DNA from: Gammaproteobacteria bacterium
Lineage (GTDB): Bacteria > Pseudomonadota > Gammaproteobacteria > Steroidobacterales > Woeseiaceae
Assembly: GCA_009937615.1 (NCBI GenBank)
Contig: JAACFB010000003.1
Location: 1-64,000, forward strand
DNA length: 64,000 nucleotides
Reading direction: 5' to 3'
Shown here: positions 30,160 to 46,636 of the stretch, piece by piece
Position numbering within the stretch: position 1 is the stretch's first letter
How the letters are laid out: each line of letters opens with the position of its first letter
Notes under the pieces: generated by a model
What the model saw: only the letters and a program-made list of their open reading frames with translations
What the model was told of the DNA's origin: nothing
Databases searched by the model: none
Translations under genes and position numbers: made by a program

Positions 30160-30168
30160 GTTTATTTC

Positions 30169-30969
30169 CTAGCGAATCCGCGATTTGCGCAGAGTCGCCC
30201 ACGCGATCAGCAGGCCCGTACTGACGATAAGAATAAATATTGACGCCAGCGCATTGATGTCCGGAGTCACACCCAGCTTCACTTTCGAAAAAATGTACAT
30301 CGGCAGCGTGCTGGCTCCCGGCCCGGAAACGAAGCTCGCAATGACAAGGTCGTCGAGCGACAGCGTGAACGCCAGCAGCCAGCCCGCGATCATCGCGGGC
30401 GCTATGAGCGGCAGGGTAATATCGAAGACGACGCGAAACGGCCTGCCGCCGAGATCCATGGCGGCTTCTTCCAGCGACTCATCCATGGCGGCAAGCCGGG
30501 ACCGCACGATGACGGCAACGTAAGCCATTGCGAACGTCGTGTGCGCGATCGTGATCGTTCCGAATCCCCGCTGATCCGGCCAACCGAAATACTGCTTCAG
30601 GCTCACGAAAAGGAGCAGCAGAGACAGACCAGTGATAACTTCCGGCATGACAAGCGGTGAGGTGATCATGCCCGAAAAAACCGTGCGGCCGCGGAAATTT
30701 CCGAAACGCGCCAACAGCAGGCCAGCCATCGTGCCGAGCACGGTTGCGAGCGTCGCGGCCGTTGCCGCAATGCGCAGGCTCAGAAACATCGCGTCAAGGA
30801 TCTGGTCGTTTCGAAATAGCTCGCCATACCAACGAGTCGAGAAACCGCCCCAGATCGTCGCCAGGTTGGAATCGTTGAACGAGTATATGACGACCGATAT
30901 CAGCGGTATGTACAGAAACGCGTAGCCGAAAGCGAGCGTAGAGAGGATGAACAGCGATCGCTTCTGCAT
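30169..30969 (-). CDS. potI: polyamine-type ABC transporter permease
   Basis: A 266-residue inner-membrane permease with six predicted helices, starting MQKRSLFILSTLAFGYAFLY. The coupling (EAA) loop is AAMDESLEEAAMDLGGRPFRV (about 160-180). It matches PotI/PotC, the second permease of putrescine or spermidine importers. Its ATG touches the end of potH (one-base overlap), so the permeases are translated together. It is the last gene in the minus-strand BetI-acyl-CoA dehydrogenase-PotFGHI operon. The transported compound may be a polyamine or a related amine. Confidence 0.88.
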   Translation of the reverse strand: MQKRSLFILSTLAFGYAFLYIPLISVVIYSFNDSNLATIWGGFSTRWYGELFRNDQILDAMFLSLRIAATAATLATVLGTMAGLLLARFGNFRGRTVFSGMITSPLVMPEVITGLSLLLLFVSLKQYFGWPDQRGFGTITIAHTTFAMAYVAVIVRSRLAAMDESLEEAAMDLGGRPFRVVFDITLPLIAPAMIAGWLLAFTLSLDDLVIASFVSGPGASTLPMYIFSKVKLGVTPDINALASIFILIVSTGLLIAWATLRKSRIR

Positions 30970-31859
30970 CAGGCGGCCCCTGTTTCCCGTGTTTGGCTTC
31001 TCTGCAGGAAGACGATCGGTACGACGAGCAGCAGGAGCAACATGACGGCAACCGCGGACGCCAGCGGCCAGTCGCGATTCACATAAAACTCATCGAACAG
31101 CACGCGCCCGATCAGCAGCGCGTCGGGCCCGCCAAGCAGGTACGGTATGACGTACTCACCCATCGCCGGGATAAAGACGAGCAAGCACCCGGCGATGACG
31201 CCCGGGCGGGCGAGCGGCCAGGTGATGTCCCAGAAGGCCCGGGTGCGTGACGCGCCGAGATCCAGGGCCGCCTCGACAAGATCCTCATCCATGCGCTCGA
31301 GCGTGGCGTAGACCGGCAACACCAGGAACGGCAGATAGGAATAGGTCAGGCCAATGAAGACCGCGAAGTCCGTATACATCATCTGAATCGGCTGATCGAT
31401 CAGGCCGAGCCAGAGCAGGGAATTGTTGATAACGCCGTGATTGTTCAGCAGGCCCATCCAGGCATAGACGCGCAGGAGAAACGAGATCCAGAAGGGCAGA
31501 ATGATCAGCAGCAGCAGCAGGCTCCGGGTTGCGGGGCTCGACCGGGCAATGCCGTAGGCGATCGGGAAACCAAGCGCCAGGCTCAAAATCGTTGCCGCCG
31601 CTGCAAGCAGTACGGACTTCAGGTAGGTGACCGCATAGAGTTTGTCGGTCAGCAAGAATAGAAAATTATCGGCAGTGATCGCCAGATCGCCGTGTTGATC
31701 GAAGCTCGGCGTAAACGGGGGCTGCGCGATAATCGGATCAGCCAGGCTGATCTTCAGAATAATTGCAAAGGGCAGCAGGAAGAAAACCAGCAACCACAGG
31801 TACGGAACCGCGATCGTAATGCGTTGCCAAAGCGTATCGTGTTGGGTAGCGCCAGCCAT
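30969..31859 (-). CDS. potH: polyamine-type ABC transporter permease
   Basis: A permease of about 296 residues with six helices and the coupling loop MDEDLVEAALDLGASRTRA. Long periplasmic residues after helix 1 (LADPIIAQPPFTP) are typical of PotH. The ATG at 31859 (MAGATQHDTLWQR) is preferred to the longer frame because the extra residues lie inside potG. It overlaps the end of potG's gap by a few bases only. Together with PotI it forms the membrane channel of the importer. Confidence 0.87.
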   Translation of the reverse strand: MAGATQHDTLWQRITIAVPYLWLLVFFLLPFAIILKISLADPIIAQPPFTPSFDQHGDLAITADNFLFLLTDKLYAVTYLKSVLLAAAATILSLALGFPIAYGIARSSPATRSLLLLLIILPFWISFLLRVYAWMGLLNNHGVINNSLLWLGLIDQPIQMMYTDFAVFIGLTYSYLPFLVLPVYATLERMDEDLVEAALDLGASRTRAFWDITWPLARPGVIAGCLLVFIPAMGEYVIPYLLGGPDALLIGRVLFDEFYVNRDWPLASAVAVMLLLLLVVPIVFLQRSQTRETGAA

Positions 31860-31867
31860 GTTTAGGG

Positions 31868-32971
31868 TCAGTCGACCAGGACCACGGCGCTGAGCGGCTG
31901 CCAGGATATCCAGATTTCGTCGTCCCACTCGACGAAACGTTTCGAGGAACGCCGGCGATTCTGACTGCTGACCTGGATCATTTTTCCGGATTCAAGCCGC
32001 ACACGGTACAGGGAAAGATTGCCGAGATAGCCCTGGTCGTCAACGATGCCCCGCAGCCGGGCGTCGTAAAGATCTTCGGGTTCGCTGCGGCTGATAAAGA
32101 TTTTCTCCGGTCGAACGGCAACCCCTACAGCCTGCCCGACGGCAACGGCGTAGTCGCCAACCGCCCGAAGCGTCGAGCCAAGCTCCTCGCACTGTATGGA
32201 AATACCGTCCGGATCGACGCTCGCCACAGTCCCTTCGAACGTATTGATCGTGCCGATGAAGTTGGCGACGAAACGGTTGCAGGGATATTCATAAATCTCC
32301 TTGGGCTCGCCAACCTGCAAAAACCGGCCTTCGTTCATGACGGCGATACGGGACGACAACGTCATTGCCTCTTCCTGGTCATGAGTCACGACGACGAACG
32401 TAATGCCGAGTTCATCCTGGATGTTCATGAGCTCGAACTGGGTCCGTTCCCGCAATTTCTTGTCGAGAGCGGCAAGCGGCTCGTCGAGCAACAGAACTTT
32501 GGGCCGCTTGATCAACGCCCGGGCCAGGGCGACACGCTGCAGCTGCCCGCCGGATAGCTGGTCAGTCTTGCGCTGCCGAAAGTCGCCGAGCTGCACGAGT
32601 TCCAGCATGTCGTCAACGCGTCGCGCGATCTCGTGTTTGCCAACACGGTCTTTGCGCAGACCGTAGGCAATATTCTTTTCCACGTTCATATGCGGAAAAA
32701 CCGCGTACGACTGGAACATCATGTTGACGGGACGTTCATAGGGCGGCAGGTGCGTCACATCAATGCCGTCGATTTCGACCTTGCCTGCAGAGGGCGTCTC
32801 GAAACCCGCGAGCATTCTCAGCAGCGTTGATTTGCCGCAGCCGGAGCCACCGAGAATCGAAAAAAGTTCACTGCGCCCGATGTCGAGGTGAATGTCGTCC
32901 ACGGCGACGAAATCGCCGAATGACTTACTCAGCCCCGCGATGCGTATCAGTGGATTCGCTGTATCCGTCAA
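31868..32971 (-). CDS. potG: polyamine-type ABC transporter ATP-binding protein
   Basis: An ATPase of about 367 residues. Walker A GGSGCGKSTLLRMLAG, Q-loop NMMFQSYAVFPHM, signature LSGGQLQRVALAR, Walker B VLLLDEPLAALDK and the H-loop VVTHDQEEAM are all intact. The C-terminal TOBE domain (GNLSLYRVRLESGKMI) closely follows E. coli PotG. The TTG at 32971 is proposed as start: AAGGTGAG lies six bases upstream and it clears the end of potF. The longer frame starts at TTG 33022, inside potF, with no such site. Confidence 0.88.
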   Translation of the reverse strand: MTDTANPLIRIAGLSKSFGDFVAVDDIHLDIGRSELFSILGGSGCGKSTLLRMLAGFETPSAGKVEIDGIDVTHLPPYERPVNMMFQSYAVFPHMNVEKNIAYGLRKDRVGKHEIARRVDDMLELVQLGDFRQRKTDQLSGGQLQRVALARALIKRPKVLLLDEPLAALDKKLRERTQFELMNIQDELGITFVVVTHDQEEAMTLSSRIAVMNEGRFLQVGEPKEIYEYPCNRFVANFIGTINTFEGTVASVDPDGISIQCEELGSTLRAVGDYAVAVGQAVGVAVRPEKIFISRSEPEDLYDARLRGIVDDQGYLGNLSLYRVRLESGKMIQVSSQNRRRSSKRFVEWDDEIWISWQPLSAVVLVD

Positions 32972-32993
32972 TGCAGGCTCACCTTTGACGTCG

Positions 32994-34115
32994 TCACCAA
33001 ATGCCGCTCTTCGCGCGGGCAAACGCGCGTGTTCGCGGGCGTTCTCGTTTCGGGTTAACGGTTTTCACCGGGTACAGAATGTCCCACAGGGCCGCGTCCG
33101 GAAATACCGCAGGATTCTCGAGCAGGTCAGCGCTCATCAACGGCCACGCCGCCGCATTCGCGGTTGCATAACGGGATTGGCTCGCGTTTGCCGCGGCAAC
33201 GTCGGGGCGCAGCATGAAGTTGAGGAACAGGTAGGCGTTATCCTTGTGCGGGGCATCGCTCGGAATGAACAGGCCGTCGACCCAAAGGCCCGAGCCTTCT
33301 TTCGGGGCCGTGTAGCGCAAATCGATTTCGATACCGGCCTCTTCGGCACGGGCGGCGGCGGCGGCATAGTCGCCGGACCAGCTCATCGCAACACAGACTT
33401 CCTTGTTGGGAAGGTCGGACATCATTTTCTGGTTGCTGAAGTAACGAATGTAAGGCCTTACCCGCTTGATCTGGGCCTCTGCCTTGGCGAGACTTTCGTC
33501 ATCAACGGCGTTCGGATCCAGGCCGAGGTACGCGAGGACCATCGGAAAAACGTCGGTCGGGCCGTCGAGCAGGCTGACGCCGCAATCCGCCAGCTTTGAG
33601 ACCACTTCAGGGTCGAAAAGTATGTCGGCGCCGTCCATCGGGTGACCGGGCAGCCGTTCGCGAACCAAATCGGCATTCCAGGCATACCCGGTCGAGCCCC
33701 AGTGATAGGGGACCTGGTAGTCGCGCACTTGCGGGTAATCGATTCGCCGCATCGTTTCCGCATCAAGATGACGCACGTTGTCCAGGCGCGAGAAATCGAG
33801 TTTCTCGAAGACGCCAATCGGCGCCAGCCGCGAAGAAAACTGGTTGCTGTGCACGACGACGTCGTAGCCGCTGTTACCGGCAAGCAATTTTACGTCGACG
33901 ACTTCTGACGAATCGTAGATGTCATAGTTGACCTTGATGCCGGTCTCGGTTTCGAATTTCCGAATAATACCCGGCGCGATGTAATCGGCCCAGTTGTAGA
34001 CATTGACGACCTCTTCGCCACGTTCACCGATATTTGGCCCGGTGCCACAAGCCGCCAATACCGTCAGCAGTAAAAGCAGGCAGTGCAGGGTCGCGCGTGT
34101 GTTTCTTCTCGTCAT
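32994..34115 (-). CDS. potF: polyamine-binding lipoprotein
   Basis: A 373-residue substrate-binding protein with lipobox LAAC (Cys23) of a type II signal. The mature part begins VNVYNWADYIAPGI, the hallmark of PotF/PotD/SpuD. It continues with FETETGIKVNYDIYDSSE and YHWGSTGYAWN. The acidic and aromatic residues expected to hold a diamine occur in these segments (Trp, Asp, Tyr, Glu), but ligand choice needs structure. It is lipid-anchored rather than free periplasmic. It follows the acyl-CoA dehydrogenase by 38 bases and begins the transporter genes. Confidence 0.88.
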   Translation of the reverse strand: MTRRNTRATLHCLLLLLTVLAACGTGPNIGERGEEVVNVYNWADYIAPGIIRKFETETGIKVNYDIYDSSEVVDVKLLAGNSGYDVVVHSNQFSSRLAPIGVFEKLDFSRLDNVRHLDAETMRRIDYPQVRDYQVPYHWGSTGYAWNADLVRERLPGHPMDGADILFDPEVVSKLADCGVSLLDGPTDVFPMVLAYLGLDPNAVDDESLAKAEAQIKRVRPYIRYFSNQKMMSDLPNKEVCVAMSWSGDYAAAAARAEEAGIEIDLRYTAPKEGSGLWVDGLFIPSDAPHKDNAYLFLNFMLRPDVAAANASQSRYATANAAAWPLMSADLLENPAVFPDAALWDILYPVKTVNPKRERPRTRAFARAKSGIW

Positions 34116-34153
34116 GCAGGGCTGATTTGAACACCCATTTGGCCCGGAGACAA

Positions 34154-35314
34154 TTACATCTCGTCCAGCCCGCGTTTCAGCAGGGACCTGGCGATAATCA
34201 GGCGCTGAATTTCGCTCGTTCCCTCCCAGATCCGGTCAACGCGCAGTTCGCGGAAGAAGCGTTCGGCAACGTTTTCCCGCATGTAGCCCCGCCCGCCGAA
34301 AATCTGCACGGCACGATCGGCGACACGATTCGCCATTTCTGAAACATACAGCTTAACCATCGAGCAGCGGCTGTGCTGGGCCTTGATGTTCTCACCCCGG
34401 TCCGTGGCTCTCGCTGCCTCATAGGTCATCAGCCGGGACGCATACAGCTCGGTGACGCTGTCTGCCAGCATGAACTGTATTGCCTGTTTTTCGCTCAATG
34501 GCGCGCCGTCGACCGTCCGTTCGCTGGCGAACGCCATGGCTTCCTCGATCAGCCGCGCAGCCGCACCGCAGCTGCGCGCGCCGATCATGAGTCGCTCATG
34601 ACGGAACCAGCTGCGCGTGAACGCCATGCCGTCACCGGGTTTGCCGACGCGCTGCGAAGCCTTAACGCGCACATCGGAAAAACGATAGGTCGGATGATGA
34701 GCAGCGTAGGTGTGACTGAACGCCGGTGTCGCGACGACGTCGATGCCGGCCGTGCCCTGGTCGACGAGAAACAAGGCATCTTCGTCCTCATCCGGCAGCC
34801 GCGCCTGGAACCAGAAAAAGTCGGCGAGATTGCCGCTGGTGACATACCACTTCTCGCCGTTGAGCACGTAGGCATTCCCGTCTTTGACCGCCGTGGCGTC
34901 AAGGCCTGCGACGTCGGACCCGGGACCCGACTCGGTGATGGCGTAACAGTCCTTGCGCTCGCCTCGCATCAGCGGCAGCACATAGCGCTGGATCTGTTCC
35001 TCCGAGCAGGCGTCGAACATCCACGACTGCGGTTCCGAAAAGCACCACGATAAGGCATTGGTGATGCGACCAAGCTGCTCCCAGATGGCGGCTTGTTCCT
35101 CCATCGAGAGTTCCAGCCCGCCATAGGCTTTGGGCACGTCGATCGCCGAGAAGCCCAGCTCGATGGCTCGCGCCTTGTTTCGTTCCGTAATCTCCGCGGG
35201 CAGTTCGCCGTTATTGAGCTCCGCCTCCACCTCGTGCGGCAGCAGGTATTCGTCGGCGTACTCGCGGGCGATGGCCTGCCACCTTAATGCGCTTTCACTG
35301 AGTTCGATTTGCAC
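34154..35314 (-). CDS. acyl-CoA dehydrogenase
   Basis: A 386-residue standard-length ACAD. It has YAITESGPGSDVAGLDATA (FAD binding, about 125), the QIFGGRGYMREN segment and the catalytic-base motif IWEGTSEIQRLIIARSLL (about 360). It oxidises an acyl-CoA to the enoyl-CoA using ETF. Start GTG at 35314 has GAGG six to seven bases upstream. The start lies 20 bases inside the end of the TetR gene, so the two are coupled. Its presence between a BetI-like regulator and PotFGHI suggests the imported compound ends as an acyl-CoA. Confidence 0.85.
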   Translation of the reverse strand: MQIELSESALRWQAIAREYADEYLLPHEVEAELNNGELPAEITERNKARAIELGFSAIDVPKAYGGLELSMEEQAAIWEQLGRITNALSWCFSEPQSWMFDACSEEQIQRYVLPLMRGERKDCYAITESGPGSDVAGLDATAVKDGNAYVLNGEKWYVTSGNLADFFWFQARLPDEDEDALFLVDQGTAGIDVVATPAFSHTYAAHHPTYRFSDVRVKASQRVGKPGDGMAFTRSWFRHERLMIGARSCGAAARLIEEAMAFASERTVDGAPLSEKQAIQFMLADSVTELYASRLMTYEAARATDRGENIKAQHSRCSMVKLYVSEMANRVADRAVQIFGGRGYMRENVAERFFRELRVDRIWEGTSEIQRLIIARSLLKRGLDEM

Positions 35315-35954
35315 GATAACCTCGCTGGTTGAAATGTTTGGGAAATACGCTCTTCAAATAGCTCATGACGGCGTCCATGGCCTCGCGCCGGTCCCAGCTC
35401 TGCGGACTGACCAGGCAGGATAGCCAGAGCCCGTTCGTCATTGATGTCAGCGCATTGGCAGCGGCCGAGGCTGAAACATGCGGGTACTCGCCCTCGGCAA
35501 TGATCGCCGTGCACAGTCCTTCGACGACTTCGTCGTAATACTGGTCGAACTCGTCGCAGATCTTGCGATAGGCAGGCCGCGATTTGACCTCACCCCAGAA
35601 CGCGAACCATAGCGCCAGCTTTTGCCGGTCGCAGATCGACGGCTTGAAATCCAGCTCCATGAGGGCATGCAGCTGATCAGCCGGATGGGGGCCCGCACGT
35701 GAAAGCGTCTTGTCGAAACGTCTTCTATATTCGTCGGCCAGATGCCTGAGCGTTTCATTGAGCAGGTTGTCCTTGCTCTCGAAGTGGAGATTGACGATGC
35801 CCTGCGACAGGCCGGCTTCCCTGGCGACGTCGCCCAGGGTGGTGCTGCTCATCCCCTTGCGCGCAATGCACTTCATCGTTGCATCGATCAGCTGCAGGCG
35901 CCGGGTCGCACGGGATGCGGTCCTGGGGTTATTGTGCTTTGCGGCTGCGGGCAT
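35295..35954 (-). CDS. TetR/AcrR-family regulator, BetI-like
   Basis: A regulator of about 219 residues. The N-terminal helix-turn-helix (IDATMKCIARKGMSSTTLGDVAREAGLSQGIVNLHF, in pieces) and the C-terminal KLALWFAFWGEV, NGLWLSCLVSPQSWDR are typical of BetI, the choline/betaine regulator. ATG at 35954 has AAGGT eight bases upstream, and the frame further up is out of family. It is divergent from the aminotransferase operon. A perfect TetR-type palindrome lies in the gap at 36024-36041, so it probably represses its own operon and the enzyme operon until a ligand binds. Confidence 0.84.
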   Translation of the reverse strand: MPAAAKHNNPRTASRATRRLQLIDATMKCIARKGMSSTTLGDVAREAGLSQGIVNLHFESKDNLLNETLRHLADEYRRRFDKTLSRAGPHPADQLHALMELDFKPSICDRQKLALWFAFWGEVKSRPAYRKICDEFDQYYDEVVEGLCTAIIAEGEYPHVSASAAANALTSMTNGLWLSCLVSPQSWDRREAMDAVMSYLKSVFPKHFNQRGYRANRTQ

Positions 35955-36023
35955 GTTGTTACCTTTTTGGCTGCCGGTAGCGGGCTGAAATGCTGCCGTA
36001 CGAGCAAGGATGATGCCATATGT

Positions 36024-36041
36024 TGAATGAATACTCATTCA
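36024..36041. promoter_or_regulatory. putative TetR/BetI operator
   Basis: TGAATGA and TCATTCA form a perfect 7-base inverted repeat around ATAC. It sits 70 bases upstream of the TetR start and 64 bases upstream of the aminotransferase start. The half-site resembles those of known TetR-family repressors. One site in the middle could serve both divergent promoters. Confidence 0.68.
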
Positions 36042-36104
36042 TTATTCTGGACCTGCGAGCCTGCTTCGTGAGACTCTATGGGGACCGGAAAACAGGGAGG
36101 ATCT

Positions 36105-37439
36105 ATGCGGTCTTTGAAGCGATCCAACGAACATTTCAAGAAAGCCAAAACAAAACTCCCGCTCGGGGTGTCCTCCAACTTCCGCTACTGGGGCGATGAC
36201 AAGACGATCTACGTCAAGCGCGGTAAGGGCGGGCGCATCTGGGACGTCGACGATAACGAGTACATCGATTATCGACTGGGATATGGCCCGATTATCCTGG
36301 GCTACGCGGACCCGCGCGTCGACGAGGCAGCGCGGCGCGGAATGGACGTTGGCGGCGTGTTCGCTCTGTCAACTGAACTGGAATACACGGTTGCTGAACG
36401 CATCTGTAAAATGGTGCCGAGTGCAGAAAAGGTGCGATTGTCGAATTCGGGAACCGAGGCCGTTATGGCGGCCCTGCGGGTTGCACGGGCGCATACCGGC
36501 AAGGACGGCCATATCATGCTCGAGGGCGGCTACCACGGCGTTTTCAACGAGGTCATGTGGTACTCCGAGGTCGAGGAGTGGGATCCGAAAGATGGTGCAC
36601 CCGAGGTATTACCGTACGGGGATGGCGTACCAGGCGTCACAAAGCGCCTGTTTCATAACGCGCCTCTCAACGACGCTAACGCCATTGAGGACCTGCTCAA
36701 GAAACACCACGCCAGTATCGGCGCCTTCCTGATTGAACCGATCATGGGCAACTGCTGCGGGATCACGGCACGGCGGCAGTACATGCGCGATGTCCGCGAA
36801 CTGTGCGACCGATTCGACGTGTTGCTGATCATCGACGAGGTTAAGACCGGGTTTCGCGTAGCGCGCGGCGGCGCGCAGGAGTTGTTCGATGTACGAGCCG
36901 ATCTGTGTACATTTGCCAAGGCGATGGGCAACGGCTATCCGATAGCCGCAGTCGCCGGGAGCAACGAGGCGATGAGCTGGATCGGCAGCGATGTTGTCCA
37001 TGGCGGTACCTTCACGGGCCACTCGGTTTCCCTGGCGGCTGCCGACAAGACACTCCAGGTCATCGACGAAACCGACGTGCTGCAGACCATCGAAAACTGT
37101 GGACTGCAGCTTCAGGAGGGACTCGGCCAGATACTGAAGGAGCGGGATATCCCGCACAGCTTCACAGGTCATCCCGCACTGATGGGCCTGTTCTTTTCGG
37201 ATGAGCCCCCGTTCGATTATCGCGGCTGGGTGGATTCGGATTACGCGTTTTACGATGCGCTCGCGCCCGAGCTGCATGAACAAGGCATACTGGTCGAGCC
37301 CGACTCGCGCGAACCCTGGTTCCTGTGCGAGGCGCATGCCGAAGGTTGCCTTGAGGAAACGCTGGACAAATTCACAAAGGCCGTAGACATTACGATGTCC
37401 AAGCTTGAGGCCACGCCGAGCCTGGCGGGCACTGCCTGA
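36105..37439 (+). CDS. class-III aminotransferase, glutamate-1-semialdehyde aminomutase-like
   Basis: A PLP enzyme of about 444 residues. ATG at 36105 has AGGGAGG just upstream and is preferred over the ATG at 36078. It shows LPLGVSSNFRYW, SNSGTEAVMAALRVAR, IDEVKTGFRVARGGAQ and the PLP lysine in TFAKAMGNGYPIAAVAG. The GSA-like N-terminus (pyroglycine loop) is common in aminomutases and in omega-amino transaminases. Haem biosynthesis is unlikely to be its role because the neighbours are catabolic. It is the first gene of the rightward operon and probably deaminates the imported amine. Confidence 0.83.
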   Translation: MRSLKRSNEHFKKAKTKLPLGVSSNFRYWGDDKTIYVKRGKGGRIWDVDDNEYIDYRLGYGPIILGYADPRVDEAARRGMDVGGVFALSTELEYTVAERICKMVPSAEKVRLSNSGTEAVMAALRVARAHTGKDGHIMLEGGYHGVFNEVMWYSEVEEWDPKDGAPEVLPYGDGVPGVTKRLFHNAPLNDANAIEDLLKKHHASIGAFLIEPIMGNCCGITARRQYMRDVRELCDRFDVLLIIDEVKTGFRVARGGAQELFDVRADLCTFAKAMGNGYPIAAVAGSNEAMSWIGSDVVHGGTFTGHSVSLAAADKTLQVIDETDVLQTIENCGLQLQEGLGQILKERDIPHSFTGHPALMGLFFSDEPPFDYRGWVDSDYAFYDALAPELHEQGILVEPDSREPWFLCEAHAEGCLEETLDKFTKAVDITMSKLEATPSLAGTA

Positions 37440-37478
37440 TAACGATACGAAAAATGCACATAAAGCGAGCCCTGATTA

Positions 37479-39095
37479 ATGAAAACCTATGACGCGATCA
37501 TCGTTGGCGCCGGACACAACGGCCTGACGACAGCGGCCTTCCTCGCCAAGTCCGGACTCGACGTCGTGTGCGTCGAGAAGAACGACTACATCGGCGGTGC
37601 CGCGGTCAGCCGGGAGCTATACAAGGACTGGATGTACTCAAACTGCTCGTATGTCTGCAGCCTGCTGCGGCCCGAGATATATCGTTCGCTTGAGCTGCAT
37701 AGGCACGGCCTGCAGGTTACTCCGTACGGCGGATCGGTCCAGTTCATGGAAAACGGCGACTACTACGGTTCCTATCACGACCCGGCGGTAGCGTACCGGG
37801 AGATGGCGCGGTTCTCGCGCCACGATGCCGACGCGTATGAGCGTTACTCGGCCGACACGATGCGCCAGTGCCGGTTTATTCGCGACACGCTGCTGCGCAC
37901 GGCGCCGGATCCCACGTCGTTCAAACCGAGGGACATCAAGGAGCTGATCGCGATCGGCAGTAAGTTCATGGAGATGGGTGAGGACCGGATGTACGAGACC
38001 ATCCGCTTCTGGACGATGAGCGTCGCCGAATACCTCGCAGAGTATTTCGAGACCGATGTCATCCGGACGGCGTTTTCGGGCAGCGGCATCATCGGCACCG
38101 CGCTCGGCGTGCATTCGCCGGGCACGGCCTACGTGCTATTGCATCACTACATGGGCGATGTCGATGGCAACGTCGGCACCTGGGGCGTCGCCCGCGGTGG
38201 CATGGGCGCCGTATCCAAATCCATTGCAGGCGCTTTCCAGGCTTACGGCGGTGAGCTGCGCACCGAGGCCGGCGTCGACAAGATCATCGTCAAGAACGGG
38301 CAGACCACCGGAGTGGCGCTCGAAAACGGCGAAGAGATTTCGGGACGGCTCGTCGTTTCCGCCATGGACGTCAAGCGGACTTTTCTAAACTGCATGGACA
38401 AGTCCGATCTGCCGGCGGCGTTTTACGACCGGGTAGCGAACTTCAAGATTCGCGGCTCGTCCGGAAAGGTCAACATAGCGCTCGATGGAATGCCGACATT
38501 TCCGGCCCTGCCCGAGGGCAGCACGCTCTATCACAGCGACATGCACTTTATCGATTCGATGGAACGCATGGAGCGCGCCTACGACGACTGGAAGGCCGGC
38601 ACCTGGTCGAAGGATCCATACATCGACATGGTTGTTCCGACCATGACCGATCCCACGATGGCGCCGCCCGGCAAGCACTTTATGAGCTGTTTCGTGCAGT
38701 ACTGCCCCTACGAGCTGGAAGGCCGAGCATGGACCGACCCCGAGCGCGAGGAATTTGCCAAGACCGTCATCAATCAGATCGCAAACTACAGCCCCGATTT
38801 CAAAGAGCTGATCCTGCACTACGAAGTGCGCACGCCGCAGGACATCGAGGACCAGATCGGCATAACCGAGGGCAATATTTTCCACGGCGAACTGACGATG
38901 GATCAGCTGCTGTTCAACCGCCCCGTGCCCGGCTATGCGCAGTACCGATCGCCGGTCCGCGGCCTTTACATGTGCGGCTCGAGCACCCACCCGGGAGGCG
39001 GTGTCATGGCAGCGCCCGGCGCAAATGCGGCAAGAGAGATACTTGCCGATCTGCGGCGCCCGAATACCGTTCCCGAAAACTTTGGCGATGACTGA
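37479..39095 (+). CDS. PYROXD2/phytoene-desaturase-like FAD oxidoreductase (copy 1)
   Basis: A 538-residue flavoprotein with N-terminal FAD Rossmann motif IVGAGHNGLTTAAFLAKSG and a C-terminal FAD contact LYMCGSSTHPGGGVMAAPGANAA. It belongs to the NAD(P)/FAD oxidoreductase group that includes phytoene desaturases and mitochondrial PYROXD2. No carotenoid genes lie nearby, so a carotenoid role is doubtful. It may oxidise an amine or a C-C bond in the locus's substrate. It starts 39 bases after the aminotransferase and is followed after five bases by a paralogue. Confidence 0.8.
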   Translation: MKTYDAIIVGAGHNGLTTAAFLAKSGLDVVCVEKNDYIGGAAVSRELYKDWMYSNCSYVCSLLRPEIYRSLELHRHGLQVTPYGGSVQFMENGDYYGSYHDPAVAYREMARFSRHDADAYERYSADTMRQCRFIRDTLLRTAPDPTSFKPRDIKELIAIGSKFMEMGEDRMYETIRFWTMSVAEYLAEYFETDVIRTAFSGSGIIGTALGVHSPGTAYVLLHHYMGDVDGNVGTWGVARGGMGAVSKSIAGAFQAYGGELRTEAGVDKIIVKNGQTTGVALENGEEISGRLVVSAMDVKRTFLNCMDKSDLPAAFYDRVANFKIRGSSGKVNIALDGMPTFPALPEGSTLYHSDMHFIDSMERMERAYDDWKAGTWSKDPYIDMVVPTMTDPTMAPPGKHFMSCFVQYCPYELEGRAWTDPEREEFAKTVINQIANYSPDFKELILHYEVRTPQDIEDQIGITEGNIFHGELTMDQLLFNRPVPGYAQYRSPVRGLYMCGSSTHPGGGVMAAPGANAAREILADLRRPNTVPENFGDD

Positions 39096-39100
39096 TAAAA

Positions 39101-40645
39101 ATGACTGACAAATACGATGCGATCATTGTAGGCGGGGGGCATAACGGGCTCGTGTGTGCCGGACTGCTCGCCAAATCCGGTAAGCGAGTGCTTGTGCTCG
39201 AGGCAAACGACCAGGTGGGCGGCGCCGCGGTGACGCGCGAGTTTGCCGACGGCTATTCCGTGTCGGCATGCGCGCACCTGCTCTACCAGCTGCAGCCCGC
39301 CGTCAGAAAAGACCTCAAGCTGAGCGTCAAGCTTGCGAGCGACGATATGACCACGATCGCGCTGGGTGACGACGGTGAGCACGTCCGAATGGTGGGGAAC
39401 AAGGCGTCCGGCGTCAGCGATGCCGACGCCCGCAGCTATCGCGGCTTTCGCAAACGCATGACGCGATTCGCCGACCTGCTCGGAACCTACTTCAACAGGC
39501 CGCCACCGCGGCTGGGCACCAAGGACTTCAAGGATGTCTCGGTGCTTGCGCGGCTGGGCCTCGATATACGCCGGCTGGGCAGGGGCGAAATGCAGGAATT
39601 CCTGCGGCTTATCGGCATGAACATTCACGACGAAGTTGTCGAGCGCTTTGAAAGTCCGCTGCTGAAAGGCGCAATCAGCCTGGATGCTGTCCTCGGCACG
39701 CACCTGGGGCCGCGCTCGCCCAACACCATCATGACCTACCTCTACCGGCAGGCTGGCAATCATGGCCGGATTGCCGCGCCGAAAGGCGGCATGAGCAGTG
39801 TCACCGAGGAGCTGGCGCACGTCGCACGCACTGCGGGTGCGACGATTCGCACGGGCATGGCCGTAACGCGCATCGTCGTCGAGAATGGTCGCGTTGCTGG
39901 TGTCGAAACCGAGGCGGGCGAGCGATTCGACAGCATGATAGTGATATCGAATGCGGATCCGAAACGCACGATCATGGAACTCGTTGGCGCACGTCATGTC
40001 GAGACGGGTTTCACGCACCGTGTCCATCACCTGCGATCGCGCGGCAATGCGGCGAAGCTGCACCTGGCGCTCGATGGGCTGCCGCAGATCGCGGGTCTGT
40101 CGAAAAAAGATTTCGCCGAACGACTCGTTATCGCGCCGGATGAACACTATGTTGAGCGCGCATTCAATCCCGCCAAATACGGCGCAAGTTCGCCGGAGCC
40201 GGTCGTTGAGATTACGTTCCCGAGCTTCCGTGACGAGACACTGGCGCCGACCGGCAAGCATGTCATGTCGGCAATCGTGCAGTACGCGCCCTATGCGCTG
40301 AAGGGCGGCTGGACTGATGCGGCGAAAGGTGAATTTGAAGCGGCAACCATCCGGGCGATCGAACGTTACGCGCCCGACATCGTGCAACGAATAACGGCCA
40401 GCGAGTTGTTGACGCCGGCGGACATCGAGCGGGAGTTCCATATCACGGGCGGACACTGGCATCACGGCGAGCTGACGCTGGACCAGTTCATGTTCGTGCG
40501 GCCGGTTGCGGGAGCCGCGCAATACCAGATGCCAATTGAAGGCCTGTACCTCTGCGGTGCCGGCACGCACCCGGGAGGCGGAGTCAGCGGCGCCGCGGGG
40601 CGCAACGCGGCGCGAGCCATTCTCGGCAGGGAGAAAGCAGCATGA
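39101..40645 (+). CDS. PYROXD2/phytoene-desaturase-like FAD oxidoreductase (copy 2)
   Basis: A 514-residue paralogue of the preceding gene. The FAD motif is IVGGGHNGLVCAGLLAKSGK, and the C-terminal FAD motif LYLCGAGTHPGGGVSGAAGRNAA. The central substrate region differs clearly from copy 1, suggesting a heteromeric pair or two successive steps. It is five bases after copy 1 and overlaps the GcvT-family gene by four bases (ATGA). It is cytoplasmic, with no signal. The reaction is unknown. Confidence 0.8.
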   Translation: MTDKYDAIIVGGGHNGLVCAGLLAKSGKRVLVLEANDQVGGAAVTREFADGYSVSACAHLLYQLQPAVRKDLKLSVKLASDDMTTIALGDDGEHVRMVGNKASGVSDADARSYRGFRKRMTRFADLLGTYFNRPPPRLGTKDFKDVSVLARLGLDIRRLGRGEMQEFLRLIGMNIHDEVVERFESPLLKGAISLDAVLGTHLGPRSPNTIMTYLYRQAGNHGRIAAPKGGMSSVTEELAHVARTAGATIRTGMAVTRIVVENGRVAGVETEAGERFDSMIVISNADPKRTIMELVGARHVETGFTHRVHHLRSRGNAAKLHLALDGLPQIAGLSKKDFAERLVIAPDEHYVERAFNPAKYGASSPEPVVEITFPSFRDETLAPTGKHVMSAIVQYAPYALKGGWTDAAKGEFEAATIRAIERYAPDIVQRITASELLTPADIEREFHITGGHWHHGELTLDQFMFVRPVAGAAQYQMPIEGLYLCGAGTHPGGGVSGAAGRNAARAILGREKAA

Positions 40646-41838
40646 CGATCCAGGAAGTTCCACAGGGGCGCCTGCGCACACCGTTCTACTCGCGCATGAG
40701 CGAGCTCGACACGGTAAACAGCTGGCACGAGTGGAAGGGTTACACGACGCCAGACGAGCTCTACTGCGCCGAAACCGAGTACTTCGCGATTCGAAACGCG
40801 ACCGGCGTGTTCGACCTGACGCCGATGACAAAATATCGCATCAGCGGTCCCGATTCGCTCGAATACATTAATCGCCTTGTCACGCGTGACATGGCAAAGA
40901 TCAAACCCGGACGTGTTGCCTACGCCGTGTGGTGCGACGATCGCGGCCAGGTCATCGACGACGGCACCATTTTCCATCTTCGGGAAGGGGAGTACCGCCT
41001 GTGTTCGCAGGAGCGTCATTTTGACTGGTTGATGGCATCTGCGATCGGCTTCGACGTGTCGGTCGTCGAGGAAACAGCCGAGGTCGCCGGTCTCGCCGTG
41101 CAGGGACCGACGTCTTATTCAGTACTGAGCAACATGGGTCTCGACGGGCTTGGCGAACTGAAGGTGTTCGGCCTGATGCACTTTGACTTCCAGGGCGCCG
41201 AACTGATGGTGTCGCGCACGGGGTTCACGGGCGATCTGGGTTACGAGCTCTGGATAGAGCCCGCAAAGGCGGAACAGCTCTGGGACGCGCTGTTCGAGGC
41301 GGGCAAGCTGCACGGCATTCGTGCAATCGGCGTGCACGCGCTCGAAATGGCGCGAGTCGAGGCGGGCTACCTGGCTGCTTACGAGGATTTCCTGCCGGCA
41401 AAAGCGACGCTGCGGACCGGCCGAACGCGTTCGCCGCTGGAGCTTGGTCTCGACTGGCTCGTGGATTTCAAGAAGCCGGTCTTCAATGGCCGTCGCGCGC
41501 TGGCTGAAGAGCAGCGTCGCGGTTCGACATGGCGCCTGGTCAAACTCGATATCGACGGCAACAAGACCGCACACCATTCCTATATCTATGCGAAGCCGAA
41601 AAACAACAAGCGCGAGATCGGTTTCGTTACCTCGGCCGTGTGGTCGCCGATCTGCAAGCAAAATGTTGCCATTGGCACGGTCAGGATGCCGCACGGGGAA
41701 ATCGGCAGTAACGTCTGGGTCGAGATTTACTATCAGCGAGAGATGCACTGGTCCAAGGCAATGGCCAAAGCCAGCGTTGTCGACAAGCCGTTCTGGTTCC
41801 CGCCGCGGCGCAGCGCGACGCCCCCGGGGCCTTACTAG
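40642..41838 (+). CDS. GcvT-family aminomethyl/demethylase protein (second copy)
   Basis: A 398-residue GcvT-fold protein, distinct from the DmdA-like one at 6818. It shows ATGVFDLTPMTKYRISGPDS, LVTRDMAKIKPGRVAY, LAVQGPTSY, SRTGFTGDLGYELWI (folate-binding Glu region) and a RVEAGYLAAYEDF variant of the VEGG(L)LSY motif. Such proteins take a methyl or aminomethyl group to THF. Here it likely demethylates a product made by the oxidoreductases. It overlaps copy 2 by four bases and precedes the acyl-CoA ligase gene by 32. Confidence 0.82.
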   Translation: MTIQEVPQGRLRTPFYSRMSELDTVNSWHEWKGYTTPDELYCAETEYFAIRNATGVFDLTPMTKYRISGPDSLEYINRLVTRDMAKIKPGRVAYAVWCDDRGQVIDDGTIFHLREGEYRLCSQERHFDWLMASAIGFDVSVVEETAEVAGLAVQGPTSYSVLSNMGLDGLGELKVFGLMHFDFQGAELMVSRTGFTGDLGYELWIEPAKAEQLWDALFEAGKLHGIRAIGVHALEMARVEAGYLAAYEDFLPAKATLRTGRTRSPLELGLDWLVDFKKPVFNGRRALAEEQRRGSTWRLVKLDIDGNKTAHHSYIYAKPKNNKREIGFVTSAVWSPICKQNVAIGTVRMPHGEIGSNVWVEIYYQREMHWSKAMAKASVVDKPFWFPPRRSATPPGPY

Positions 41839-41870
41839 AGAGATCCCGGGGCACGGCGGCCGGGTTAGTC

Positions 41871-43958
41871 ATGGCGCATCGGCTTGACGCACTGCTCCGG
41901 CCCCGGTCGGTTGCCGTCGTAGGCGCTTCGGCGAGGCCGGAGTCGATGGGCGAGTGGGCTCTGAAAAACCTGCTGAAAGGCGGTTACGAGGGCAGCATCT
42001 ATCCGGTCAATCCGGGCTATGACGAACTCCAGGATCTGCGATGTTTTCCGGATCTCGGCTCGCTTCCCGAGCGACCGGACCTCGTCGTGTTTGCCGTGGG
42101 TGACCAGCGTATCGAGGCGGCGCTGGACGCAGCAATCGCGATCGGCGTTCCGGCCGCGGTGATCATGTCCACGACTATCATCGACGACGACGGGGTGCCG
42201 CCGCTCAAGGATCGTCTGCAACGGAAAATCAACGCCGCAGGCATCGTGGTTTGCGGCAGCAATTGCATGGGTTTCTACAACGTTCGCGATCACGTCTGGG
42301 CCTGCGGATTCGACAGTGCCATGCACGAGGCACCCGGCAACATTACGCTGCTCAGCCATTCGGGCGCCGGCATGTCGGGCATCATCGACTGCGACGAGCG
42401 TGTCCGGGTGAACCTTGCCGTCTCTACCGGCAACGAACTCAGCGTGACGATGGATGAGTACCTGGATTTCGCGCTTGATCTGCCGGAGACGCGTGCTGTG
42501 GGCCTGTTCATCGAGACGGCGCGCAACCCGAAAGGATTTCGGGCGGCGCTGGAGAAGGCGAATCAACGCCATATCCCGGTCGTCGCGATCAAGGTGGGCA
42601 AGACGGAAAAGGCCGCGCGTCTCGCCGTATCGCACTCGGGCGCAATCGCCGGCAACGATGCGGCCTACGAGGCCTTGTTCGACCGCTTTGGCGTGCAGCG
42701 CGTGCTTGACATGGACGAGCTGGCGACCACGCTCATCCTGTTTGCCGAACTGCACCCCGTTGCAGCCGGCGGACTCGTCACCCTGCACGACTCCGGCGGC
42801 GAACGGCAGCTGCTGATCGATCTTGCCGATGAGGCTGGTGTGCCGCTTGCCGATCTCGGCAAAGAGACCGTCGTTGAGCTCGAGAAAATTCTTGACCCCG
42901 AGCTGCCGGCCGTAAATCCGCTCGACGCCTGGAGTCGCGGCGGCAGCAACTATGAACAGCAGATGACGCAGTGCCTGTCGCTGATGATGCAGGACGACGG
43001 CGCGGCGCTGGGCGCGGCGATGCTGAATCGCGCACCCGACGGCGTGATCTACCCGATTTACCTGAACTACGTGCAGCGGGCGCATGTGGAGTCGGGCAAG
43101 CCCGTCGCGCTGGTCGCAGCACGGCAAGGTACGGGCAGTGATGAGGTCGTTGTTACCAGCACGCATGCAGGGATCCCCGTCCTCGACAGCGTGCCCCTGT
43201 TCCTGAGCGGGGTGCGTGCACTGTTTGCCTACCGGGATTTTCTGCTACGCGACGACGATGCGCCTGTCGCGGTGGCCGAGAGGGCGGTCGCCGAATGGCG
43301 GTCCCGGCTGCGCCTGCCCGGCACGCTCGGCGAGGCCGGCGCGCTGGAGCTGCTGGCCGACTTCGGCCTTCCGGTCAGCCGCACGGTCCGGGTGAACGCC
43401 GGCAGCGAGCTCGATGAGGCCGCGGAGTCATGTGGATACCCGCTCGCCCTCAAGACCGCTGTGCGCGGGGTTGCGCACAAGTCGGATAGTGGCGGTGTCG
43501 TTCTGAATATCGGGGACGCGGCTCAGCTCGCCGAGGCCTACCGCAAGCTTGCGTCCAGCCTCGGCCCCGAGGCCATAGTGGCGCCGATGGCCGACGAGGG
43601 CGTCGAAATGATTCTCGGTGCCACACGGGACGAGCAGCTAGGCGCGATCGTGCTGCTCGGGTTCGGCGGCGTGTTGGCCGAAACCCTGCAGGATGTAAAG
43701 TTTGCCCTGCCACCGTTCGACGCGGCGCATGCGCGGCGCTGTGTCGACAGCCTGCGGCTGCGGCCGTTACTCGACGGCGTGCGCGGCAAACCGGCAGCGG
43801 ACATTGATTCGTTCTGCGATCTCGCTGCGCGGTTTTCGGCGATTGTCGACGCGCTTCGCGAGGAGATCGAGGAGGTGGATATCAACCCGGTCATCGTGCA
43901 CGAACGCGGCTGCACAATCGTCGACGCGCTGATTGCTTCGAAGCGTAAGCAGGCCTGA
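41871..43958 (+). CDS. NDP-forming acyl-CoA synthetase (acetate-CoA ligase ADP-forming type)
   Basis: A 695-residue fusion of the alpha and beta parts of ADP-forming acyl-CoA synthetases. An N-terminal CoA-binding domain (VAVVGASARPESMG) is followed by two succinyl-CoA-ligase-like flavodoxin domains. The phospho-histidine motif is AVSHSGAIAGND (about 245). The C-terminal ATP-grasp domain (about 480-695) has YPLALKTAVRGVAHKSDSGGVV. It joins an acid to CoA at the cost of ATP, or runs in reverse to make ATP. It shares one base with the start of the TIM-barrel gene. The acid is probably the chain left after deamination. Confidence 0.88.
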   Translation: MAHRLDALLRPRSVAVVGASARPESMGEWALKNLLKGGYEGSIYPVNPGYDELQDLRCFPDLGSLPERPDLVVFAVGDQRIEAALDAAIAIGVPAAVIMSTTIIDDDGVPPLKDRLQRKINAAGIVVCGSNCMGFYNVRDHVWACGFDSAMHEAPGNITLLSHSGAGMSGIIDCDERVRVNLAVSTGNELSVTMDEYLDFALDLPETRAVGLFIETARNPKGFRAALEKANQRHIPVVAIKVGKTEKAARLAVSHSGAIAGNDAAYEALFDRFGVQRVLDMDELATTLILFAELHPVAAGGLVTLHDSGGERQLLIDLADEAGVPLADLGKETVVELEKILDPELPAVNPLDAWSRGGSNYEQQMTQCLSLMMQDDGAALGAAMLNRAPDGVIYPIYLNYVQRAHVESGKPVALVAARQGTGSDEVVVTSTHAGIPVLDSVPLFLSGVRALFAYRDFLLRDDDAPVAVAERAVAEWRSRLRLPGTLGEAGALELLADFGLPVSRTVRVNAGSELDEAAESCGYPLALKTAVRGVAHKSDSGGVVLNIGDAAQLAEAYRKLASSLGPEAIVAPMADEGVEMILGATRDEQLGAIVLLGFGGVLAETLQDVKFALPPFDAAHARRCVDSLRLRPLLDGVRGKPAADIDSFCDLAARFSAIVDALREEIEEVDINPVIVHERGCTIVDALIASKRKQA

Positions 43959-44794
43959 TGCAGAAACTCGAAATCTATCAATCCCTGTGGGGGATGGAGT
44001 TGCGCAGTCCGCACGTGCCCGAACGGACCAACGACGAGTGCTTTGCGATGGTCGCTGACGCCGGCTTCGATGGCATGTGCATCGACCCGGCCGTGGATGA
44101 AGTGGCGGAACTTCGGCAGCTGCGGGATCTGTATCGCGCTTATGATCTCGGCTGCATGGTCAATGCATTTCCCGGTCACGAAGAAGACATGCGGCCGCTG
44201 CTCGAGTTTGCCGGCGAGATGGACGCTTGCATGGTGAACGTCATAAGCGGCGTCATGCCCATGCGGCCGGAGGACGCCGTCGCTGTCGTGCGCCGCTGGA
44301 TGGGTGAGGCCACGAGCGCCGGCGTGCCGTTGCTATTTGAAACGCATCGCGATGGCCTGCTCAACGACCTGTATTTCACGCTGCAGCTCATGGACCTCGT
44401 TCCCGACATGCGCCTGTGTGCGGACCTGTCCCATTTCGTTGTCGATCGCGAGATGCGCAACCCGATTTCAGAGCGTGACCAGGGCTACGTTACCTCGATC
44501 CTCGAACGGTCAGACTGCTTCCAGGGGCGCGTTGCCAACCGCGAGCAGGTGCAGATCCAGATCGGCTTCCCCCAGCACCAGGAATGGGTCGACATATTCA
44601 AGCGTTGGTGGAAGCAGGGCATGCAGGCCTGGCGCGCGCGCAGTCCCGATGACGCGACGCTCGTTTTCCTCTGCGAGCTTGGCCCGCCGCCCTATGCCAT
44701 TACCGATGCGGAGCAGCGCGAGCTCTCCGATCGGTGGCAGGAATCGCTGCAGATCCGCGACTGGGTCCTGGAGATCTGGGCGGACCTCGACTGA
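43958..44794 (+). CDS. sugar-phosphate isomerase/epimerase-like TIM-barrel protein
   Basis: A 278-residue xylose-isomerase-like TIM barrel (AP endonuclease 2 superfamily). Likely metal ligands are in LFETHRDG, CADLSHFV and LCELG, spaced as in the family. It has no signal. Its ATG uses the last base of the ligase stop codon (TGATG). The reaction is unknown, and relatives isomerise keto/aldose sugars or hydroxy acids. It closes the rightward operon. The next gene on this side runs the other way. Confidence 0.78.
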   Translation: MQKLEIYQSLWGMELRSPHVPERTNDECFAMVADAGFDGMCIDPAVDEVAELRQLRDLYRAYDLGCMVNAFPGHEEDMRPLLEFAGEMDACMVNVISGVMPMRPEDAVAVVRRWMGEATSAGVPLLFETHRDGLLNDLYFTLQLMDLVPDMRLCADLSHFVVDREMRNPISERDQGYVTSILERSDCFQGRVANREQVQIQIGFPQHQEWVDIFKRWWKQGMQAWRARSPDDATLVFLCELGPPPYAITDAEQRELSDRWQESLQIRDWVLEIWADLD

Positions 44795-45986: not shown

Positions 45987-46028
45987 GGTCGTCTCCATGC
46001 GGCTGTCAGCTTGGTGGACAGTCTGTGG

Positions 46029-46604: not shown

Positions 46605-46636
46605 CGAAAAGTACCTCGACTTCCTCTGTGTATCCT

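What the first reader, a model, noticed from the sequence alone, without database searches (positions are those of the whole stretch)
30169..44794. Divergent catabolic locus with an unusual enzyme set
One gap separates TetR/BetI-acyl-CoA dehydrogenase-PotFGHI (leftward) from class-III aminotransferase-PYROXD2-PYROXD2-GcvT-acyl-CoA ligase (NDP-forming)-TIM barrel (rightward). Spacing is tight (overlaps of 4 and 1 bases, gaps of 5-39), and a TetR palindrome lies between. The sum reads as uptake of a polyamine-like or N-methylated compound, deamination, flavin oxidation, methyl transfer to THF and CoA-linked chain breakdown. I know of no described pathway with this gene set. The substrate is inference.
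Basis: partly seen in the sequence, partly recalled or inferred. Interest (0 to 1): 0.8.

Follow-up and report, generated by a model that had tools for sequence, protein, structure and literature searches.

The report
Probable methylated-polyamine breakdown gene cluster
A bacterium, probably of the sediment family Woeseiaceae, carries a conserved, switch-controlled gene set that probably imports a polyamine-like compound and strips methyl groups from it with an unusual pair of flavin enzymes and a folate-binding partner; the exact substrate is not known.

Summary
PotIHGF, acyl-CoA dehydrogenase and a BetI-like TetR run leftward; a class-III aminotransferase, two PYROXD2-type flavoproteins (PX1, PX2), GcvT, an NDP-forming acyl-CoA ligase and a TIM barrel run rightward. 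A GbcA/Stc2-like Rieske oxygenase just outside the coordinates belongs with them. The condition "no conserved neighbourhood" is not met: PX1-PX2-GcvT stand together in 112 of 120 loci chosen by PX1. The TetR palindrome is exact in 40 of 58 divergent gaps and single-copy in the genome. Rieske and PX2 co-occur in 76 and are both absent in 15 of 107 family genomes. In relatives, putrescine-type genes lie beside the trio. Best reading: import of a polyamine-like cation; the Rieske enzyme removes a methyl from the quaternary state; PX1/PX2 oxidise remaining N-methyls and GcvT passes the carbon to folate; the amine is transaminated; the chain goes through CoA thioesters. N-demethylation and polyamine chemistry are inferred from families, residues and neighbours; nothing was assayed. 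New variant of a known kind. The listings that I saw of ten literature searches show no description, but a 2026 homarine paper could not be read.

The parts
28954..30159 (+). Rieske non-haem iron oxygenase, GbcA/Stc2/CntA-like (candidate first N-demethylase of a quaternary ammonium)
   Evidence: PF00355+PF00848; best NCBIfam GbcA 289.5 bits, below its 670 cut-off; nearest solved structures 3n0q, then 3vca and 4qup (4qup titled 'Monoxygenase; demethylase'), then carnitine monooxygenase 6y8j; bridging Glu in 19 of 19 aligned
30169..30969 (-). PotI-like ABC permease
   Evidence: PF00528
30969..31928 (-). PotH-like ABC permease (true start may lie further in, near 31901)
   Evidence: PF00528
31868..33022 (-). 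PotG-like ABC ATPase
   Evidence: NCBIfam PotG 465 bits, cut-off 613; polyamine-ATPase subfamily potA 408 bits, above its 355.6 cut-off
32994..34115 (-). PotF-like solute-binding protein with the Trp/Asp positions of the diamine site kept
   Evidence: NCBIfam PotF 317 bits, cut-off 636; PDB SpuD 3.7e-90, PotF 1e-88; W42, D44, W246, D249, W278, D280, Y316 kept in 13 of 13, but the position of the PotF Glu (here D188) and a Ser vary
34154..35314 (-). acyl-CoA dehydrogenase
   Evidence: PF00441/02770/02771; EGTSEIQ motif present
35295..35957 (-). BetI-like TetR regulator
   Evidence: PF13977, PF00440; NCBIfam BetI 115.1 bits against cut-off 118
36024..36041 (.). operator palindrome TGAATGAATACTCATTCA
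   Evidence: exact in 40 of 58 TetR/AT-or-PX1 gaps measured; only exact copy in the 3.36-Mb assembly
36105..37439 (+). class-III aminotransferase of the GSA/GntE type
   Evidence: PF00202; GntE 458 bits, below cut-off 525
37479..39095 (+). PX1, flavoprotein of the CrtI/MAO superfamily (PYROXD2-type, label recalled)
   Evidence: Pfam; model pLDDT 79; fold
39101..40645 (+). PX2, second flavoprotein, 35% identical to PX1
   Evidence: Pfam; model pLDDT 85; fold; identity
40642..41838 (+). stand-alone GcvT/aminomethyltransferase-family folate enzyme
   Evidence: PF01571+PF08669; nearest solved TMAO demethylase 9q59/9q5a, then GcvT; DD motif kept in 14 of 14
41871..43958 (+). NDP-forming acyl-CoA ligase
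   Evidence: PF13380, PF13607, PF13549; two SHSG motifs
43958..44794 (+). TIM-barrel protein (AP_endonuc_2 superfamily), role unclear
   Evidence: PF01261 31.5 bits, cut-off 31.1; at 60% identity or more in only 14 of 120 loci

Best explanation
A TetR-controlled catabolic unit for an N-methylated, polyamine-like cation. PotFGHI imports it. The Rieske oxygenase hydroxylates an N-methyl of the quaternary form, which leaves as formaldehyde. PX1 and PX2, acting together, oxidise remaining N-methyl groups to the iminium level, and GcvT captures the one-carbon unit on tetrahydrofolate. This is the job done by the fused or heteromeric dimethylglycine/sarcosine enzymes, but built from CrtI/MAO-type flavoproteins and a separate GcvT. 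The freed primary amine is removed by the aminotransferase (in relatives by SpuC-type or gamma-glutamylation enzymes), the aldehyde is oxidised, and the acid is processed as a CoA thioester by the ligase and dehydrogenase. Shown: gene content, operon-like order, conservation, operator, co-occurrence, conserved residues, folds. Inferred: substrate, reaction order, PX1-PX2-GcvT as one enzyme, the fate of the carbon.
For: Trio PX1-PX2-GcvT on one strand in 112 of 120 loci selected by PX1; of the other 8, L056 has the trio with a wider gap, L119, L120, L121 and L144 have under 1.9 kb of contig left after PX1, and L090-L092 have PX1 alone. Distances of the three proteins co-vary over 107 sets (r 0.86, 0.89, 0.92; permutation maxima 0.13-0.18), and PX1 and PX2 each form a clade in a tree of 54 of those 107 sets. 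In 80 loci of 18 kb or more: any Pot 42, Rieske 50, Pot or Rieske 62, AT 37; 0 of 20 arbitrary 19.5-kb stretches hold any marker at the thresholds, three show weak hits below them. Rieske and PX2 in 107 family genomes: 76 both, 15 neither, 14 PX2 only, 2 Rieske only (tallied by hand; Fisher p=1e-8). The Rieske gene is directly upstream of PX1 in 10 loci; its bridging Glu is kept in 19 of 19, PotF Trp/Asp positions in 13 of 13, GcvT DD in 14 of 14. Relatives add clusters whose one tested representative is PuuC/BADH-like ALDH (27 of 120), gamma-glutamylputrescine-synthetase-like GlnA (23), DAO oxidase (22), SpuC-type aminotransferase (13), enoyl-CoA hydratase (11). Four of four alphaproteobacterial plasmid loci that I opened (of 31 records found) pair the trio with TetR, ABC transporter, aminotransferase and Rieske. 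A human mQTL at PYROXD2 concerns mono- and dimethyllysine (PMC9730628, passages).
Against: No assay, expression or ligand data. Curated cut-offs for PotF, PotG, GbcA, BetI, GcvT and GntE are all missed, so specificities may differ. The PotF glutamate position and a serine of the site vary between loci. 38 of 80 long loci have no Pot gene and 30 of 80 no Rieske at the thresholds used, and 14 of 90 family genomes with PX2 have no Rieske match, among them two listed as 97% and 100% complete (G101, G056). The palindrome is not kept in the four alphaproteobacterial loci (2 to 5 mismatches). Three loci have PX1 alone. The nearest folds of PX1 and PX2 are carotenoid desaturases, ahead of amine oxidases. 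No aldehyde dehydrogenase was among the genes scanned at the locus, and a Rieske reductase was not searched for. Family members are related, so counts are not independent events.
Confidence: 0.52

Rival explanations
1. The same N-demethylation machinery, but the substrate is a methylated amino acid or betaine (trimethyl-/dimethyllysine, gamma-butyrobetaine, beta-alanine betaine or similar) rather than a di- or polyamine; Pot-type importers then carry a lysine-like cation.
For: Human PYROXD2 genotype associates with N6-methyllysine and dimethyllysine. Solved Rieske relatives include carnitine monooxygenase and the demethylase 4qup (proline betaine, recalled). Some loci without Pot genes hold the Rieske directly before PX1-PX2-GcvT. 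The acyl-CoA dehydrogenase has a weak match to crotonobetainyl-CoA dehydrogenase (168.7 bits, cut-off 540).
Against: PotF keeps the Trp/Asp positions of the diamine site, and gamma-glutamylputrescine-synthetase-like, PuuC-like and SpuC-like genes recur, which point to diamines.
Confidence: 0.22
2. Ordinary polyamine (putrescine/spermidine/cadaverine) catabolism with an unrecognised flavin oxidase pair; GcvT and Rieske act on something unrelated or have changed function.
For: Pot transporter, SpuC/PuuA/PuuC-like neighbours; putrescine oxidase and a putrescine-bound MAO are among the fold matches.
Against: GcvT stands with the pair in 112 of 120 loci and keeps its DD motif in the 14 rows aligned; a GbcA-type Rieske co-occurs across genomes, in G090 about 1 Mb away on the same contig. 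Unmethylated polyamines need neither, as far as I recall.
Confidence: 0.13
3. Part of homarine (N-methylpicolinate) or another N-methyl heterocycle pathway already described in 2026.
For: A conserved homarine pathway in environmental bacteria was published (one discussion sentence and the reference seen in PMC13390433); homarine is an N-methyl compound.
Against: The citing sentence ties homarine to Mgd, for which I made no search; no ring-opening enzyme was recognised among the genes scanned. The homarine paper itself was not held, so this is a weak argument.
Confidence: 0.06

Closest known systems
Glycine betaine demethylation (GbcAB, DgcAB or DMGDH, SoxBDAG / DMGO; recalled)
   Same: Rieske oxygenase for the quaternary amine, then flavin oxidation of N-methyls with a GcvT-type folate domain; regulator and Rieske are of the same broad kind
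   Different: The flavoproteins are CrtI/MAO-type and come as a pair; GcvT is a free protein; a polyamine-type importer and aminotransferase replace glycine metabolism
Polyamine catabolism by transamination or gamma-glutamylation (Spu/Puu/Pau; recalled)
   Same: PotFGHI-type import, class-III aminotransferase; relatives carry PuuA-, PuuC- and SpuC-like genes beside the trio
   Different: Those routes, as I recall them, contain no GcvT, Rieske or PYROXD2-type genes
DMSP demethylation (DmdA-DmdB-DmdC; recalled)
   Same: GcvT paralogue plus acyl-CoA ligase plus acyl-CoA dehydrogenase
   Different: DmdA model far below cut-off (159.5 against 410 bits); the ligase is of the NDP-forming type; flavin oxidases and Rieske are added
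TMAO demethylase (Tdm)
   Same: Closest solved relative of this GcvT is the C-terminal part (411-758 of 793) of Tdm
   Different: Tdm has a separate N-terminal part in the same chain; none here
Human PYROXD2
   Same: Presumed family of PX1/PX2 (recalled); linked to methyl-lysine levels by mQTL
   Different: Single protein without a folate partner known to me; homology was not tested here

Membership tests
PotFGHI polyamine ABC importer | PotF-family binding protein with the diamine-binding Trp/Asp residues (residue roles recalled from PotF structures) | tested here: met
   3.7e-90 to SpuD, 1e-88 to PotF; Trp/Asp/Tyr positions kept in 13 of 13; the Glu and a Ser position vary
PotFGHI polyamine ABC importer | Curated equivalog score for PotF and PotG | tested here: not met
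   PotF 317 of 636; PotG 465 of 613; the broader potA subfamily cut-off is met, 408 of 355.6
PotFGHI polyamine ABC importer | Binding of a polyamine | not testable with these tools
   needs protein
Quaternary-ammonium Rieske N-demethylase (GbcA/CntA/Stc2) | Rieske CxH/CxxH cluster and catalytic domain | tested here: met
   PF00355 and PF00848; motif shown
Quaternary-ammonium Rieske N-demethylase (GbcA/CntA/Stc2) | Glu instead of Asp as the residue between Rieske and mononuclear iron (distinction recalled) | tested here: met
   Glu in 19 of 19 rows
Quaternary-ammonium Rieske N-demethylase (GbcA/CntA/Stc2) | Partner reductase | not tested
   not searched for in the genome
Glycine betaine monooxygenase GbcA | Curated equivalog score | tested here: not met
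   289.5 against 670
GcvT/DMGDH-type one-carbon transfer to THF | GCV_T and GCV_T_C domains, catalytic Asp region (role recalled) | tested here: met
   DD in 14 of 14
Glycine cleavage T-protein | Curated GcvT score | tested here: not met
   221.7 against 300 and 172.6 against 235.9; a better GCV_T match lies at G000:C61
DMSP demethylase DmdA | Curated equivalog score | tested here: not met
   159.5 against 410
BetI | Curated score | tested here: not met
   115.1 against 118; 114.1 against 201.3
Puu/Pau gamma-glutamylation pathway | gamma-glutamylpolyamine synthetase in the same cluster | tested here: not met
   none among the genes of window 28954-44794; a cluster with such a representative is present in 23 of 120 related loci
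PYROXD2 | Sequence similarity to human PYROXD2 | not tested
   no human sequence in the tools; label recalled
CrtI/MAO flavoprotein superfamily | Two-domain FAD fold | tested here: met

The most novel reading that the evidence does not exclude
PX1-PX2-GcvT is a previously undescribed, widespread folate-coupled N-demethylase made of two PYROXD2-type flavoproteins and a free aminomethyltransferase. With the Rieske oxygenase and Pot importer it lets Woeseiaceae and many other Proteobacteria mineralise N-methylated polyamines, for example those left in diatom biosilica in marine sediments. It would also give the human enzyme PYROXD2, linked genetically to mono- and dimethyllysine, a chemistry.
Probability: 0.27. 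Interest if true: 0.85.

Novelty: new variant of a known kind. Interest (0 to 1): 0.62.

Why it matters
Woeseiaceae are, as I recall, common in marine sediments, and methylated amines are an important part of marine dissolved organic nitrogen (abstract of PMC13390433). A dedicated pathway for methylated polyamines would fill a gap between polyamine and betaine turnover, name the chemistry of a flavoprotein family that includes a poorly understood human gene (family label recalled), and give marker genes for environmental surveys. The conserved operator makes the inducer directly testable.

Tried and rejected
DMSP-like demethylation was considered because GcvT, acyl-CoA ligase and dehydrogenase occur together; rejected as membership because DmdA scores far below cut-off and the extra flavin/Rieske genes have no place in it.

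Plain glycine betaine catabolism was considered because of BetI- and GbcA-like genes; not favoured because of the Pot importer, the aminotransferase and the recurring Puu/Spu-like genes, and because the genome holds six other GcvT-containing frames of 815-1059 codons, of the size of dimethylglycine/sarcosine enzymes, whose identity was not tested.

Fold search gave no discrimination: PX1 matches carotenoid desaturases first, then renalase, Rab-GDI and putrescine oxidase; PX2 matches carotenoid desaturase and two uncharacterised oxidoreductases, then renalase and putrescine oxidase at nearly equal Z. The PDB sequence search found no close relative of PX1 (best 8.7e-17, phytoene dehydrogenase).

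Literature: searches for PYROXD2 with GcvT or aminotransferase, PYROXD2 with methyllysine (11), homarine, long-chain polyamines (46), Rieske with aminomethyltransferase and polyamine, N-methylputrescine/trimethyllysine and Woeseia/polyamine (57): no listed row describes this gene set. I judged from titles and starts of abstracts; searches list 20, 20, 15 and 15 of 98, 81, 1,655 and 1,763 papers. The SAR11 polyamine paper PMC8437039 (passages only) names puu/spu genes and has no occurrence of 'aminomethyl'. The homarine paper PMC13236597 was not held.

Rows dropped before counting: of loci L039-L180 (142), 137 were longer than 6 kb and carried PX1 at 57% or more; 17 with the same PX1 stretch were removed, leaving 120. 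Neighbour clusters were reported only if present in 6 or more loci, and each was named from one representative. In the operator count 2 of 60 gaps were set aside for size. The count of trio loci by clustering mixes PX1 and PX2 in one cluster, so one search is used. Nine of the 29 genomes without a Rieske match are not listed; their place in the two-by-two table follows from the totals.
Full report
What is there. The window lies in contig C32 of a 3.36-Mb, 94-contig assembly. The closest named relatives are metagenome assemblies labelled Woeseiaceae or, unspecifically, Gammaproteobacteria, Proteobacteria or Chromatiales; that this one is a Woeseiaceae is my inference from them. Spacings are as described. 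Two additions: a Rieske oxygenase ends 9 bases from potI, and a third PX paralogue lies at 47417-49006. A profile search of the whole assembly at E<=1e-20 finds only three PX-type proteins, all in this window.

Is the neighbourhood real? Four annotated plasmid records, of 31 found, were opened. After removing short loci and duplicates 120 loci remained. PX1, PX2 and GcvT stand together on one strand in 112 of 120. Of the eight others, one (L056) has the trio with a wider gap, four have under 1.9 kb of contig left after PX1, and three (L090-L092) have PX1 alone. The median PX1-PX2 spacing is a 4-base overlap. Pairwise distances of the three proteins correlate at 0.86-0.92 over 107 sets, against at most 0.18 in 300 permutations. 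Among 80 loci of at least 18 kb, 37 have the aminotransferase, 42 some Pot gene, 32 the dehydrogenase, 32 the ligase, 42 the TetR and 50 a Rieske at 28% identity or more. Twenty arbitrary 19.5-kb stretches from twelve of the same genomes hold none of these above the same thresholds; three show weak hits below them. So the trio is the fixed core; import, deamination and CoA genes are a common but variable outer part. The TIM barrel is mostly local (14 of 120).

The switch. The palindrome at 36024 is exact in 40 of 58 divergent TetR/aminotransferase-or-PX1 gaps, with one mismatch in 9 more. Only 43 exact copies exist in 2.13 Mb of all 120 loci; two of the other three lie just upstream of PX1 or the aminotransferase (L122, L180) and one elsewhere (L150). 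In the four alphaproteobacterial loci it is not kept (2 to 5 mismatches). In the own assembly it is the only exact copy; one 1-mismatch copy lies about 87 kb away on the same contig. The regulator therefore seems dedicated to this divergent promoter. The window has no second site, so co-regulation of the Rieske gene is not shown.

The N-methyl evidence. (a) The Rieske protein's nearest solved relatives are 3n0q, 3vca and 4qup (the latter two recalled as proline-betaine demethylase Stc2) and carnitine monooxygenase, and its bridging residue is Glu in 19 of 19 rows; that Glu marks ammonium-type Rieske enzymes is recalled. (b) In 107 family genomes Rieske and PX2 are both present in 76, both absent in 15, PX2 only in 14 and Rieske only in 2 (tallied by hand; Fisher p=1e-8). 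The genomes are related and partly incomplete, so p overstates independence; one of the two Rieske-only genomes (G222) has PX1 at a contig end, while two genomes with PX2 but no Rieske (G101, G056) are listed as 97% and 100% complete. In G090 the two genes are about 1 Mb apart on one contig and still both present. (c) Counting Rieske genes at 37% or more, they are immediately upstream of PX1 in 10 of 120 loci, convergent with the Pot operon in 15, downstream of the trio in 15, on the divergent side in 5, elsewhere in 7, and absent in 68, short loci included. (d) GcvT is closest to the C-terminal part of TMAO demethylase and to T-proteins, and the DD motif is kept in 14 of 14. (e) Six loci have a homocysteine S-methyltransferase nearby, in L048 directly behind GcvT. 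(f) For humans, PMC9730628 reports PYROXD2 variants as the strongest association, for dimethyllysine, and also for methyllysine (passages). The link from PX1/PX2 to PYROXD2 is recalled, not tested.

The polyamine evidence. PotF is a clear SpuD/PotF relative and keeps the Trp and Asp positions that hold diamines in PotF in 13 of 13 rows, while the Glu and one Ser position vary (roles recalled). In relatives the trio is accompanied by clusters whose tested representatives are a PuuC/betaine-aldehyde-type aldehyde dehydrogenase (27 of 120), a gamma-glutamylputrescine-synthetase-like GlnA (23), a DAO-type oxidase (22), a SpuC-type aminotransferase (13; PRK07480 subfamily score above cut-off, its link to SpuC recalled), an enoyl-CoA hydratase (11) and a glutamine amidotransferase (8). 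Four of four opened alphaproteobacterial plasmid loci combine TetR, trio, aminotransferase, Rieske and a Pot-type transporter.

Model. Import; Rieske demethylation of a quaternary ammonium; flavin oxidation of tertiary and secondary N-methyls with one-carbon transfer to folate; transamination; oxidation to an acid; CoA activation and dehydrogenation. The order and the substrate are inferred. That diatom long-chain polyamines are N-methylated is recalled; their occurrence in diatom biosilica is in passages of PMC12206195, and their presence in Southern Ocean and diatom-rich sediments is the title of papers that I saw only in its reference list. A link to Woeseiaceae is my inference.

Against it. 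Specific curated models are missed for most genes, many loci lack Pot or Rieske nearby, no aldehyde dehydrogenase was among the genes scanned at the locus, a Rieske reductase was not searched for, and nothing is biochemically shown. A lysine-type substrate is the strongest rival.

Known or new. Each part belongs to a known family; the combination, and the use of two CrtI/MAO-type flavoproteins with a free GcvT, appears in no row that I saw of the ten literature searches. The library lacks most subscription papers and the 2026 homarine paper, so the claim of novelty is provisional.

Noticed in passing
window 44841-49006: A second small cluster: acyl-CoA-dehydrogenase-like protein, flavin reductase, HxlR regulator and a third PX flavoprotein; in a Chromatiales-labelled locus (L137, apparently the same contig as L094) a 64% relative of that third PX directly follows the trio.
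   Followed up: partly
window 28207-28818: Flavin-reductase-like protein divergent from the Rieske gene, 66-73% conserved next to it in L039, L040 (apparently the same contig as L103) and L046; possible partner, unknown.
   Followed up: no
window 6818-7984: A further GcvT-family protein between a 5'-nucleotidase-like gene and a fatty-acid oxidation pair.
   Followed up: no
window 12918-16566: Methionine-type genes: two Cys/Met PLP enzymes and a homoserine O-succinyltransferase.
   Followed up: no
L107, L146, L167, L177; G046: Some genomes carry two PX1-PX2 sets (with GcvT in L107, L167 and L177), in places facing each other, suggesting duplicated substrate ranges.
   Followed up: no
L090, L091, L092: Three loci of the same family with a solitary PX1 (71-75% identity) lacking PX2 and GcvT.
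   Followed up: no
e.g. L044:16714-17268, 18 of 120 loci: A protein cluster whose representative is Asp_Arg_Hydrox (2-oxoglutarate oxygenase-like) recurs near the trio.
   Followed up: no
L082:8778-10382: PX1 reading frame with an in-frame stop codon; left as it is.
   Followed up: no
G000:C32:123205-123222: A one-mismatch copy of the operator on the same contig, outside the window.
   Followed up: no
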